DNA of 64,000 nt from Microthyrium microscopicum (lineage: Eukaryota; Ascomycota; Dothideomycetes; Microthyriales; Microthyriaceae): contig MU004234.1 in assembly GCA_010405405.1 (NCBI GenBank), positions 1,755,563-1,819,562 on the forward strand. Reading direction: 5' to 3'. Shown one piece after another: positions 36,486 through 49,342 of this stretch (the stretch's first letter is position 1; each line of letters begins with the position of its first letter). The notes below the pieces were generated by a model. It was not told the origin of the DNA. It ran no database searches and saw nothing but the letters and a program-made list of their open reading frames with translations. The translations under genes and the position numbers were made by a program.

Positions 36486-37642
36486 CTATCGTCCTCCAAT
36501 TTGACCCTTTGGAATAGGTCGAATCCACGCCACAGAAAGGTTCATCACAATAGCAATGACTCCCAAAATCCAGATAGATTTTCCATAGTTCGTTACATTA
36601 TAGCGAAAAATGATAGCTCCAATGACACCACCAAACTATATCGCATGTCAGTCCACCAACTCCGATAACTCTTTTGAGGGGCTTTAAAAACTTACGTTGC
36701 CTACTGCGCCGACAAAACCGGACACAATACCATTGGCCTGTGGATGGACGTGAGGAACCAGCGCAAAGTTGGCGCCGTTGCTAGCGTCCATGAAGAATGC
36801 GAGGCCAGCGACAAGACCAATCATGGTGTGTTGGTTATGTGAATTGGCGAGGCCGATGGCAAGCATAAAGACACCCATGGTGACACCGAGGAAGTGGATC
36901 CATATTTTCTTGGCCCAGAGGTTGCCTTTGGTATATTTGTAGATGATGTCGCTGATAATTCCACCTGTTTGTTGTTAGCAAGTTTATAGATCAAGAAGGG
37001 CGAGTGGTTAGAACGTACCAAGAGGACGACCATAGACATTCAGAAGACCGAACATAGCGGCCCATCGGCCTGATGAGGTTTGGCCTAGTTTGGGGAAGTT
37101 CTTGAGGTAATAAGCTCCGAGAACGGAATTAATGGCAAGCTCAGATCCAAAGGAGTTGAAGTAGCATGCCATAAGCGCGACTGTTTGAGGAGAGATGAAG
37201 ACTTTGAAGATTTCCTTTGCACTTGGTTTCTCGATGACTTCGTGGGCATACTCGGCATCGATCTCGGTGACTTCACCTTTTCCAAACTCTACGTCCTTGG
37301 TGATAGCTAGCTTGTCAACCTTCTCCGTCGAATCCGCTGGTGATGCGCCAGTGCTCTCGCCGTAGACAACGCTACTTTGGGGAACATGCCGGCCTTGCTC
37401 ATGGATGACTCTCAAGTTGGCTTCAACAGCCTCATGTCGCTCCGACCACTTGCCAACAGGTGTGTCCGGGCATAAAACGACCATCAAAATAGCTGTGCCC
37501 ACGATAATAGCAAACGGTACGAAAAAGGCTCGTCGCCAAGCATCGTGAGGTGAAAGCTTGTAGTGTCCAACAAAGTGGTCGAATATAGCAGGCATGATAA
37601 AGTAAGTAATACCTCCGCCAGAGTTCCCAAAACCACCCGTCT

Positions 37643-37855
37643 ATGACGCGTAATAGCGGCTAACCTATTCATATTAAAGAATACCAAAACCAAATCCTAC
37701 AACCCCTAAATCTTAACCATAATTCTAATTTAGCAACGTATTTCTCTATTTATAATAATTTTAAGACCTATTCTAAACTCCCCTTAATAAGGGCTATCTT
37801 TAAAAGATATTTTTAAGAAGATTTATTTTTAGTTACGTAGTACTATAAAATATCT
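37643..37855 (+). repeat. Left 213-bp terminal inverted repeat
   Basis: It matches the reverse complement of 48652-48864 without gaps. About 19 positions differ, and every one is a C/T or G/A transition. It begins ATGACGCGTAATAGCGG. Confidence 0.92.
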
Positions 37856-39558
37856 TTAAAAGCAAAAAGGTTACTAATTATTAGTAAGATAGTATCCTTA
37901 TATAATACTATAGCTTACATAGAAGGATATAATAAGCTATATATAGATTTTAGTATAGTTATAAGAATATATTATAAGTAAAGATATTAGTTCGTAAAGA
38001 AGCTTACTAAATTTAGTAAAGGAATATTCTTTAAAAGGACTATACTTACAATATCTTTCCTAAAATAGCTTTAATAAATAAAATAACTCTATATAAGGGT
38101 TTTAATTAGAGTAAATACTATAGAGCTCCTTCCTTAAAAGGATAAAAGCAAGATTATAAATTTATAACTATAGTAAAGTTTAATAAAGCTTAATAATAGT
38201 AGTTCCTTACTAAATTAGCTTATAAGTAAGCCTTAGCTATAATATCCCTTTTATAGTATTATTCCTTTTATAGATTCTTAGGTTATTCCTTTATATATTA
38301 TCTCTTTAGATTAAGTATTAAGTCTTAGTAGTAAGGAAAATATAATTCTTTACTAAATAATATTATTCTAGTATGTTATCTTTTTTACTTATAACTACTT
38401 TACTAACTTTTAGTAAATCTAAGTTGCTAAAAACTTCTATCTCTTTAGCTATAATGTCTTCTAATGCTTTTCTACTACTAATTTATATTCTTAAAAGTAA
38501 TTTCTAGCTTTTAATATAATTATATAAGCTTTAAGACATTAACTTAAAGTATTTTAGACTTTTCTATTTATATTATATAAAGTAAAGTTACGTTCTAGTA
38601 AGCCTATATCCCTTAGCTTATATACTAAATTATTATATATACTATTTAGCTTACTAATTAGTAGAACTATTAATACTAAAAGTATAAGTATTCTTTATAA
38701 ATACTAATTATCTTATAAAATGTATCTATACTTAAATATTTAAGGAGCTAGCTTACTATTATAGAATACTATACTTATAAAAATATAAAAAAAGTAAGAA
38801 AATAGTATAAAATTAGCGCTAAGATAGTTAGTACTACTATATAATAATCTTATAGAGCTAAATTATATATAAGTTTATCTTTTCTTATTAAATTAAGTAT
38901 AACTAATATAATTAAGTAATAAAATTATAGTAAAGAAGGTTTAGTAAAGTAAGATTTTTTAGTATTAAGTAAAAGAGAGACTATAACTCTAATTTAGCTA
39001 TTATATCTAAGTAACGCTAAGCTAGTTTATATAGTAAGTAGTATATATACCTAAGTCTTATTAAGTTTCTTTATAGCTATATTAAGAACTAAGTAAATAA
39101 AGGAATAATATTTTTTTAGCTATTTTATAAAAGAAGAAAAAAAAATATTATTTATAATTATCTAAAAAATTTTATATAATTTAAAATTATATAGAATTTA
39201 TAGTAATTATTTAAGCTTATACTATATAGTAGTTTTATACCTACGTAGTCTTATTATAATAATTTAGTAGTAAATATTACTTTAGGAATAACATTCTACT
39301 ACTATAAAGTAAACCTTCTTAGCTAAAAAGCTTTCTTTATTCTTAATTCTATACTTTCTAGTATAGTATACTTCTATATATATAAAATTAATTATAAAGC
39401 CTATTATACTATTCCTTTCTAAAGACTACTTAAGAGAATACGTATAGTAAAATACTTTATAATAAAATACTTAGTATTTTACTTATAACGCATACTCTAT
39501 AGATAACCTATTAAAATATATTAAGGTATTTATCCTTTATAAAAAGATACCTTATATA

Positions 39559-39622
39559 AAGAATTAAGATATTATTTTACTTATTATATAAGGAATTAAG
39601 ATATTATTTTACTTATTATATA
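39559..39622. repeat. Tandem duplication, 2 x 32 bp
   Basis: Two adjacent copies differ at one position (G/A). They lie inside the AT-rich element in the nitrate transporter. Confidence 0.8.
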
Positions 39623-46487: not shown

Positions 46488-46544
46488 TTAAAGTATATTA
46501 TATTAAAAATTTATAGTTAAAGTATATTATATTAAAAATTTATA
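46488..46544. repeat. Tandem duplication, about 2 x 29 bp
   Basis: Two adjacent copies of a unit beginning TTAAAGTATATTATATTAAA lie inside the same AT-rich element. Confidence 0.8.
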
Positions 46545-48651
46545 TATCTTTACTAGTACTAATATAAGATTAAGGTATTCTTATTAAATTAGAACCTTAA
46601 AATTCTCCTAATATATTTAAATTATATTCTAGTTTAAAGGCTAGACTAGCTTCTCTACTTTCCTTAGCTAATAAGTATTTAGTACTAATCTTATTATATA
46701 ATATCCTTATAGTTACTATAACTATAAAATAGTTTAGGTAATCTATAATAAACTACTTACTACTAATTAGAGTAGAGAATAAATTTAAGCGTAGCTTTAC
46801 CTCTAACTCCTTATATACCTCTAAGAATTATTATAGCTAGAGATAAATACGAATAAATAGCTTACTTAGTCTACCTTATTCTCTACTAAGAGGTTTATTA
46901 AGATTAAAATTAATAAAAGTAAAGAAACTATTATATAGCTTATATATATTTACTAGTAAATAGGTATCTTTATTCTATCTACTTACTACTTACTTTCTTT
47001 TCTTTATTAGCTTTCTAATAATTAGTAACCCTTAATATTTAGTATTAGGAGCTATTATATAAAGGAAGTATAGTTTTCTATTTATAGCGTAAGGCTTTTT
47101 CTTTTTATTATTTATAATCTTATAAGAATTCTAGTTATTAATATATTTCTATATAACTATTTATAAGTATAGTATAAAGATTACTAGTATAGCTATATAG
47201 TCTAGATATTTATCCTTTATATAGGCTTTCTAATCTTCTAGGGATTTAAAAAATAACTAAAGAATATAATATTAGTTATAAAGAGGCATAAAGGTAAGTA
47301 CTATTTTCTTATACTTTCTACTTTATAAGCGCTCTACTACTTAGTTCCCTCTACTAACGTTTAATCTACTAGTTCTATATACTAGTTCTATAAAAATAAT
47401 AATCTTTAAAAAGGATTACTTACTACTAATTCTCTATTATAAGCTTATAATACGCGTCTACTATTATAACTATTTTATTTCTATAATCTAACTAGATAAA
47501 TTAAGGCTAAATAAGGTTTAGCGTATTAAGTAAATTATTTAAATATTAGTAAAAAGTACTAATGCTTATAGTATTTAAGATACTAACATAATACTAAATA
47601 ATATATTAAGAGAATATATTAATATACGTATATATTTTAATTTTAAAATTCTTAAGCTTATTATACTTATTAACTAACTAGACCTAGTTAAGCTCTTTAA
47701 TAATATAGTCGCCTTATACTTAATAAGATTACTTCTAACGAGCTTATATTACTTTAAGATCTACTTCCTTCTAAATCTACTATAGAATTTATTATAAAAC
47801 CTTATATCCTTATTTACGTAGCCTATTAACTATTAAGTAGTATCTATAATTCTTAATACTAATATATAATCTATTAAGTTTAGCTTAAAATACTACTAAA
47901 TCTTTAATATATGCTACTTCTCTTTCTTCTTAGAATATATAAAGGTTTTACTATTTAAGTCTTAGTTTCTTATATAGTTACTAAAGTATCTATAGTTTTA
48001 TATTATAGCTATAGACCTAGAGAAGAATATAAAGCTCTTTTTTATTATAGTTCTAGAAATAGAATAGCTATTTAGTAAGTTTCTTAAGTTTTTTTATAAT
48101 TTTAAGTAGTTTCTACATAATAATTTTCTATTCTTTAATCTTATAGTATAAGATTAAAAGAAATACTTTAGTATTATAATATTTTTTTAACTACTTAAGT
48201 AAATCTTAGTATATATACTCCTTATTATTAATAAGATATTTAATATTAAGGCAATACTCCTCTAAATTAATATAATAAGTAAGTATCCTAAAAGAATTAT
48301 TAGTAAATAAAGTAGAAAGAAAAGAAAAGAAAGATAGAAAAAAGAAAATAGGTAGAAGTTAGAAAAGAAAAAGAACTTATAAATTATCTATAGATAAAAG
48401 AATTTCCTATAGATAACTTATTAAAGAATATATAATATTACTACGTAGCGTCTTCTAATTTATTATTATATTAAAACTAATATTATATAGTATATACTTT
48501 ACTAACTATATCTATATATAGTATTTACTTTTTCTAAGCTTAGAAACTTAATATATTCTTTATTACTCTCTACTATATACTAAGTCTACTCTTATTTATA
48601 TAAAGATAGTAGTTACTTACTAAGAATATTATAATAGAGTATTAAGGTTTT

Positions 48652-48864
48652 AGATATTTTATAGTACTATATAACTAAAAATAAATCTTTTTAAAAATAC
48701 TTTTTAAAGATAGCTCTTATTAAGGGAAGTCTAGAATAAGTCTTAAAATTATTATAAATAGGGGAATACATTGCTAAATTAGAATTATAATTAAGATTTA
48801 GGGGTTGTAGGATTTGGTTTTAGTATTCTCTAATATGAATAGGTTGGCCGCTATTATGCGTTAT
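48652..48864 (-). repeat. Right 213-bp terminal inverted repeat
   Basis: Read on the minus strand it begins ATAACGCATAATAGCGG and follows the left repeat base for base until TATCT, after which the two ends diverge. Confidence 0.92.
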
Positions 48865-49342
48865 ACCCGTTAAGGCATTGGCGGTGCCTACGATGTTCTT
48901 GTCGAAGAATCCTGTGCTCCAGACCTGGCATGGGACGAAAGAACCGCCTAGAATACCTACGAAAAATCGAAGGATAATCAGCCCTTTGGCATCTTTGAGA
49001 GCGATCGCACAAGCAGTTGGAATGGCGCCCAAGACGAGCGTGCCGGCGAAGACATATCGTGGGCCGAATCTATCGCATAAAGGGCCACTAATGGCGCGGA
49101 CGATAAGTGTTGCTGTGAGGGCGAGGATGTTGGAATTTGCGATTTCGTTCTGGCTGAGATGAAGATCCTTTTTGATCGTTTTGGTGATGAGAGGCGACCA
49201 AGCGTACCTGATGATGGATTAGGGACTAGATAATTCAATATGTAGAGCTTTGAAGGCATACCACGACATGAAAGCTACCATAAAACCCCACCAGGAGAAG
49301 AAGAACACTCGTCCATAGACATTGAATGGATTTGATACTGGT

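What the first reader, a model, noticed from the sequence alone, without database searches (positions are those of the whole stretch)
37635..48870. Nitrate transporter gene split by an 11.2-kb TIR element inside its first nitrate signature
Coding sequence on both sides joins through the codons for ALTGGFGNSGGG, with ACCCGT duplicated at the junctions. High-affinity nitrate uptake through this locus must be lost. The flanking exons, splice sites and both signature motifs are otherwise undamaged, which suggests a recent or strain-specific event and possible adaptation to organic nitrogen. The family assignment is from known NRT2/CrnA sequence; the physiological consequence is inference.
Basis: partly seen in the sequence, partly recalled or inferred. 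Interest (0 to 1): 0.85.

Follow-up and report, generated by a model that had tools for sequence, protein, structure and literature searches.

The report
Jumping gene breaks fungal nitrate transporter
In this fungal genome an 11.2-kb DNA transposon, later heavily mutated by what looks like the fungus's own defence, sits inside one of two nitrate-transporter genes, but the other copy and the nitrate-reducing enzymes look intact as far as they were read, so nitrate use is probably not lost.

Summary
The core observation holds: a minus-strand NRT2/CrnA-type gene (36486-49433) is split at its first nitrate signature by an 11,224-bp element (37642-48865) with 214-bp inverted repeats. Corrections: (1) the target duplication is CCCGTC/CCCGTT; the right-hand A of 'ACCCGT' is the element's last base. 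(2) An 11-bp tandem duplication (49343-49364) shifts the frame in exon 1. (3) A paralogue without internal stops lies on contig 9, and nitrate/nitrite reductase domains lie together on contig 7, so loss of nitrate assimilation does not follow. The element is RIP-saturated (GC 0.20). Its family has at least three lineages of about 11.3 kb with TATGACG ends, 5-7 bp target duplications and short relatives, two of which were read and are unRIPed. Lineages share a left module, related to telomere-adjacent repeats; A and B have different right modules. No credible transposase domain was found; 0 of 34 MULE and hAT matches lie in 13 element spans. Ordinary gene disruption; the unclassified, modular element family is the interesting part.

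The parts
36486..49433 (-). NRT2/CrnA-type nitrate transporter gene, disrupted; ATG at 49433, TAG at 36486-36488 (by reading)
   Evidence: frames, ATG; TIGR00886 matches at C5:1804403-1804774, 1792579-1793202, 1792255-1792530; MFS_1 on both pieces, one under its cut-off
49343..49364 (-). 11-bp perfect tandem duplication in exon 1 that shifts the frame (second lesion)
   Evidence: tblastn with paralogue pieces gives two frames
48866..48871 (.). right copy of the target duplication, CCCGTT (difference from the left copy fits C to T in CpA context, RIP-like)
   Evidence: context by reading
37636..37641 (.). left copy of the target duplication, CCCGTC
37642..48865 (.). 11,224-bp RIP-mutated TIR element, lineage A (GC 0.199, composite RIP index 1.55)
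37642..37855 (+). left terminal inverted repeat, 214 bp
48652..48865 (-). right terminal inverted repeat, 214 bp
37730..44149 (.). left module shared with lineage B copies, with lineage C copies as far as fetched (element positions 292 to about 2500), and in part with telomere-adjacent repeats
44150..48651 (.). right module; unrelated to the lineage B right module, and one 1-kb probe from it found only the two lineage A copies

Best explanation
One of two NRT2-type nitrate-transporter genes in this (probably ascomycete) genome is a pseudogene with two independent lesions: an 11-bp tandem duplication in exon 1, and insertion of an 11.2-kb class II TIR transposon in the codons of the first nitrate signature. 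The transposon inserted with a roughly 6-bp target duplication (shown by sequence), presumably by a cut-and-paste transposase acting on the TATGACG ends (inferred). Its DNA was then mutated by RIP because copies exist elsewhere in the genome (mutation pattern shown, timing inferred). The damage stops within a few bases of the element edges. The order of the two lesions is unknown. The uninterrupted paralogue on contig 9 probably carries nitrate uptake (inferred).
For: TIR pair. Of 22 end pairs of the family, 14 were examined for target duplications: 12 have perfect 5-7 bp repeats, the window site has 5 of 6 bases, one has none. A second lineage A copy lies at C1. CpA and TpG are nearly gone in the element (observed/expected 0.09 and 0.04) and the flanks are normal. 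The two lineage A copies differ by 977 transitions and 35 transversions in the aligned loci. Frame jump in exon 1. Paralogue without internal stops. Nitrate- and nitrite-reductase domains on C7.
Against: No reads, transcripts or other isolates are available, so assembly and fixation are untested. No transposase was recognised in element copies. Many 1-bp gaps among the AT-rich copies (214 in the alignments to 15 loci) hint at consensus errors, so an indel in exon 1 could in principle be one too, although a perfect 11-bp tandem duplication is not a typical homopolymer error. The far ends of niaD and niiA were not fetched, and the niaD-like PF00174 match has two stops inside, which I take to lie in an intron.
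Confidence: 0.9

Rival explanations
1. Loss of this transporter was selected, for example for life on organic nitrogen, and nitrate assimilation as a whole has been given up.
For: One NRT2 gene carries two lesions.
Against: A second NRT2 has no internal stop, and nitrate- and nitrite-reductase domains are present with long open frames in the parts held; a decaying pathway should show damage there. The two stops inside the PF00174 match are read as intronic, not proven so.
Confidence: 0.05
2. Assembly artefact: a repeat was wrongly joined into the gene.
For: Reads cannot be inspected; the element is a multi-copy AT-rich repeat, and the AT-rich copies show many 1-bp gaps.
Against: Precise TIR ends, a site-specific duplication, and the same anatomy at other sites with different duplications are what transposition gives and misassembly does not.
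Confidence: 0.03
3. The element behaves like a removable intron, so the gene still works.
For: By eye, a GT can be made from the right duplication plus the element end, and an AG stands at the other end.
Against: Joining at those sites does not keep the frame (by reading), an 11-kb intron is far longer than the other introns of this gene (intron 1 is 54 bp by reading; two further gaps of 18 and 20 codons), and the exon 1 frameshift remains.
Confidence: 0.01

Closest known systems
TIR-order class II transposons with MITE derivatives (general kind; definition recalled)
   Same: Terminal inverted repeats, short target duplications, long copies plus short ones with similar ends; the two short ones that were read share only their ends with the long copies compared.
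   Different: No recognised transposase; duplication length 5-7 bp does not match the 8 bp of hAT, 8-11 of MULE or TA of Tc1/mariner (figures recalled, except 8 bp for a hAT family, seen in PMC6710886).
RIP-mutated ~9.5-kb hAT elements carrying histone H3 in Pseudocercospora fijiensis (PMC6710886, passages seen)
   Same: Very long, RIPed fungal TIR elements in many copies.
   Different: There 20-bp TIRs, 8-bp duplications and a hAT-type domain; here 214-bp TIRs, 5-7 bp duplications, and none of 17 hAT matches in the genome lies inside 13 element spans.
NrtA/NrtB paralogue pair of Aspergillus nidulans (PMC4635503, passages seen)
   Same: Two paralogous high-affinity nitrate transporters of the MFS.
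   Different: Here one of the pair is disrupted; which one corresponds to which was not tested.

Membership tests
NRT2/CrnA (NNP) nitrate transporter | Match to the NNP family model across the protein | tested here: met
   TIGR00886 pieces cover positions 16-140, 131-281 and 280-366 of 368; no piece alone passes the curated cut-off of 311.7 bits, nor does the best piece of the paralogue (295.9)
NRT2/CrnA (NNP) nitrate transporter | Intact reading frame | tested here: not met
   Insertion plus exon 1 frameshift
TIR-order DNA transposon | Terminal inverted repeats with target site duplication | tested here: met
TIR-order DNA transposon | Transposase gene of a known superfamily | tested here: inconclusive
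   Pfam scans of read-through frames of four natural loci (L039, L030, L043, L087; the window copy itself and L040 were not scanned) give no credible match: best E 0.0057, 17.3 bits against a cut-off of 27.8, a family of unknown function. Control: DDE_3 at E 4.4e-6, 27.1 bits, cut-off 28.6, by the same method in the RIPed stretch 54902-64000
MULE | MULE transposase domain in the element; 8-11 bp duplication (recalled) | tested here: not met
   17 genome matches (a lower bound by the tool's note), 0 inside 13 element spans; duplications 5-7 bp
hAT | hAT dimerisation domain in the element; 8-bp duplication | tested here: not met
   17 genome matches (a lower bound by the tool's note), 0 inside 13 element spans; duplications 5-7 bp
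KDZ (large fungal TIR elements; recalled) | KDZ transposase domain | tested here: inconclusive
   0 matches in the genome, but the control genomes were silent as well
Polinton/Maverick (recalled: 6-bp duplication, long TIRs) | Pfam-recognisable protein-primed DNA polymerase B or integrase | tested here: inconclusive
   No such domain in the Pfam scans; RIP damage limits sensitivity; the TATGACG ends differ from the AG...TC ends recalled for Polintons

The most novel reading that the evidence does not exclude
The element represents an undescribed superfamily of large (about 11.3 kb) fungal TIR transposons with TATGACG ends and 5-7 bp target duplications. Its lineages keep a nearly identical core but exchange their termini and right-hand cargo, and part of the core is shared with telomere-adjacent repeats. 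MITE-like elements ride on the same ends.
Probability: 0.3. Interest if true: 0.55.

Novelty: new member of a known kind. Interest (0 to 1): 0.36.

Why it matters
It is a clean case of a transporter gene broken by a transposon while a paralogue appears to keep the pathway going, and it corrects the tempting story of lost nitrate use. The element family matters more: if its core encodes a transposase of no known superfamily, it adds a large fungal DNA transposon group, and its sharing of sequence with chromosome ends would make traffic between subtelomeres and dispersed transposons testable.

Tried and rejected
Pfam scans of read-through frames (stops read as Q or W) of natural element copies: L039, L030, L043, L087. 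The hits had E from 0.0057 to 0.65, all under their cut-offs and with no common theme; I take them as chance. Stop-density profiles showed only scattered windows with one low-stop frame, and transversions by codon position gave no window over the mark I had set. Comparison of the right modules of lineages A and B found about 100 bp of shared sequence at the module border and a few short AT-rich matches at DNA level; at protein level only the parts shared in DNA matched.

PDB search with the 3' (C-terminal half) NRT2 piece: nothing. Organism: not identified; a paper search on assembly size led to Parastagonospora nodorum Sn15, whose 36.88 Mb figure is 30 of 35 contigs of an assembly with 23 optical maps, so not a match to 20 contigs (passages). 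Paper searches for a transposon-disrupted nitrate transporter or for this kind of element: no listed title or abstract start describes it. Lists were capped (8 to 15 rows, of up to 90 papers), and I looked inside only three papers, by passages; so this is weak evidence that it is not in print.

Intron-like removal of the element and assembly chimaera were considered and set aside (see rivals). Dating beyond 'few transversions' was not attempted because RIP swamps the transitions.
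Full report
Setting. The window is C5:1755563-1819562 of an unnamed 36.88-Mb genome in 20 contigs. Apparent introns, RIP-type mutation and a CCCTAA-type telomere repeat at one contig start suggest a filamentous ascomycete; the species was not identified.

The gene. On the minus strand an NRT2-type gene starts at 49433 and stops at 36486-36488. The family model TIGR00886 matches it in three pieces, on both sides of the element. The 5' part ends in GTANALTG and the 3' part begins GFGNSGGG, so the break lies in the first nitrate signature (motif name recalled). 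The intron borders that I read are GT-AG, and the second signature is present.

A second lesion. Exon 1 holds a perfect 11-bp tandem duplication at 49343-49364. Upstream of it the protein reads MGFLPFDPTVLFKAPEVNPVNKKARS in one frame; downstream RSIPVSNPFNVYGRVFFFSWWGF reads in another. Pieces of the paralogue on contig 9 match these two stretches in frames -1 and -3. Which lesion came first is unknown.

The rest of the pathway. Of 18 TIGR00886 matches listed (20 of 41 candidates were scored), three are this gene and two the C9 paralogue (C9:148863-150002, 295.9 bits, and 148714-148827), none with a stop inside; the next best is 42.4 bits. The C9 frames run from MGFN to QIGGR. Of five PF00174 matches the best is at C7:1617441-1617929 with two stops inside, which lie outside the long open frame and which I take to be intronic. 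Of two PF01077 matches one is at C7:1612137-1612514 in a 642-codon open frame, on the same strand about 5 kb away. They look like niaD and niiA; their far ends were not fetched. Loss of nitrate assimilation therefore does not follow.

The element. It runs from 37642 to 48865, 11,224 bp, with 214-bp TIRs. The TIR arms differ by 19 transitions and no transversion. GC is 0.199, CpA observed/expected 0.09, TpG 0.04, composite RIP index 1.55, against -0.50 and -0.92 for the adjoining gene stretches. RIP is thus confined almost exactly to the element. The one exception that I see is the right target-duplication copy, CCCGTT where the left copy is CCCGTC, which fits a C-to-T change before A, the RIP context.

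Copies and target duplications. A search with the first 1,000 bp gave 116 matches, many of them short repeat units. End-pattern searches with up to 3 mismatches gave 52 matches for the B pattern, which include the C ends, against 1 for the reversed control, and 10 for the A pattern against 6, so the weak A hits mean nothing. Paired ends give lineage A at C5 (this window) and C1:3315371-3326639 (11,269 bp); lineage B three pairs of 11,312-11,415 bp and one of 15,303 bp; lineage C three pairs of 11,387-11,395 bp; and 12 short pairs of 553-607 bp and one of 1,192 bp (sizes). Further ends are unpaired. Of these 22 pairs 14 (8 long, 6 short) were examined for duplications: 12 have perfect 5-7 bp repeats, the window has 5 of 6 bases, and one short pair (C2:3342049) has none. 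Two short copies were read: 553 and 566 bp, GC 0.37 and 0.35, not RIPed (index -0.39, -0.68). Against the window element and 15 loci only their outer 36 to 92 bp match, and not every locus gave a match. They are MITE-like.

Modules. The window copy and the C1 copy differ by 977 transitions and 35 transversions. Against six lineage B loci, element positions 1-290 differ by 12-14% transversions, 291-1600 by 0.5-1.5%, and 1601-6509, as far as aligned, by 0.2-0.4%. Against four lineage C loci positions 291-1600 differ by 1.2-1.4%, and 1601 to about 2500 (all that was held) by 0, 0, 0 and 1 transversions per roughly 900 bp. After position 6509 lineages A and B have different right modules apart from about 100 bp at the border. 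One 1-kb probe from the A right module finds the two A copies and a weak internal self-match; one 1-kb B probe finds six places, all in lineage B copies; lineage C right modules were not read. So a nearly identical core is combined with different ends and, for A and B, different right halves. Parts of the left module also occur as arrays at six places, five within about 55 kb of a contig end and one (C4:1730311) internal; contig 12 begins with telomere repeats followed directly by such units.

What does it encode? Read-through Pfam scans of four natural loci gave nothing credible (best E 0.0057, under its cut-off). The method is not blind: it found a DDE_3 domain at E 4.4e-6, 27.1 bits, just under its cut-off, in the RIPed stretch 54902-64000 (the minus strand gave only a hit at E 0.068). 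Genome-wide, 17 MULE and 17 hAT matches were found, every one with stops inside, and 0 of 34 lie in 13 element spans, four of which have an estimated end. KDZ gave none, with silent controls. The superfamily stays open. A pre-mutation consensus would be the usual next step and was left out.

Verdict. Ordinary as a gene disruption; moderately interesting as a view of an unclassified, modular fungal transposon family.

Noticed in passing
window 54902-64000: A second AT-rich, RIPed stretch (GC about 0.22) holds a degraded Tc1/mariner-type DDE_3 domain on the plus strand, just under its cut-off.
   Followed up: partly
window 5800-8700: A third RIPed AT-rich block (GC 0.234, index 1.41), content not examined.
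   Followed up: no
L041:1-6729 (C12 contig start): Telomere repeats are followed directly by units about 2.9 kb apart that match element positions 197-1781, with ~95-bp subrepeats.
   Followed up: partly
L049:1213-1282 (C10:122212-122281): A solitary 70-bp piece of a lineage A element end in normal-GC DNA; no second end was seen in the 4 kb fetched.
   Followed up: partly
L014, L029: Two further end variants (ACGGCGCGCAATAAGGGCC and ACGGAAGCGCATTGTGGCC) in front of the same left module, possible additional lineages.
   Followed up: no
L030 (C4:1729462-1733148): A less RIPed relative of the left module, internal on its contig (GC 0.28-0.36 in six of eight 500-bp steps).
   Followed up: partly
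alignments: 214 single-base gaps in the alignments of the window element to 15 loci, which RIP does not explain; possibly assembly consensus errors or alignment effects in AT-rich sequence.
   Followed up: no
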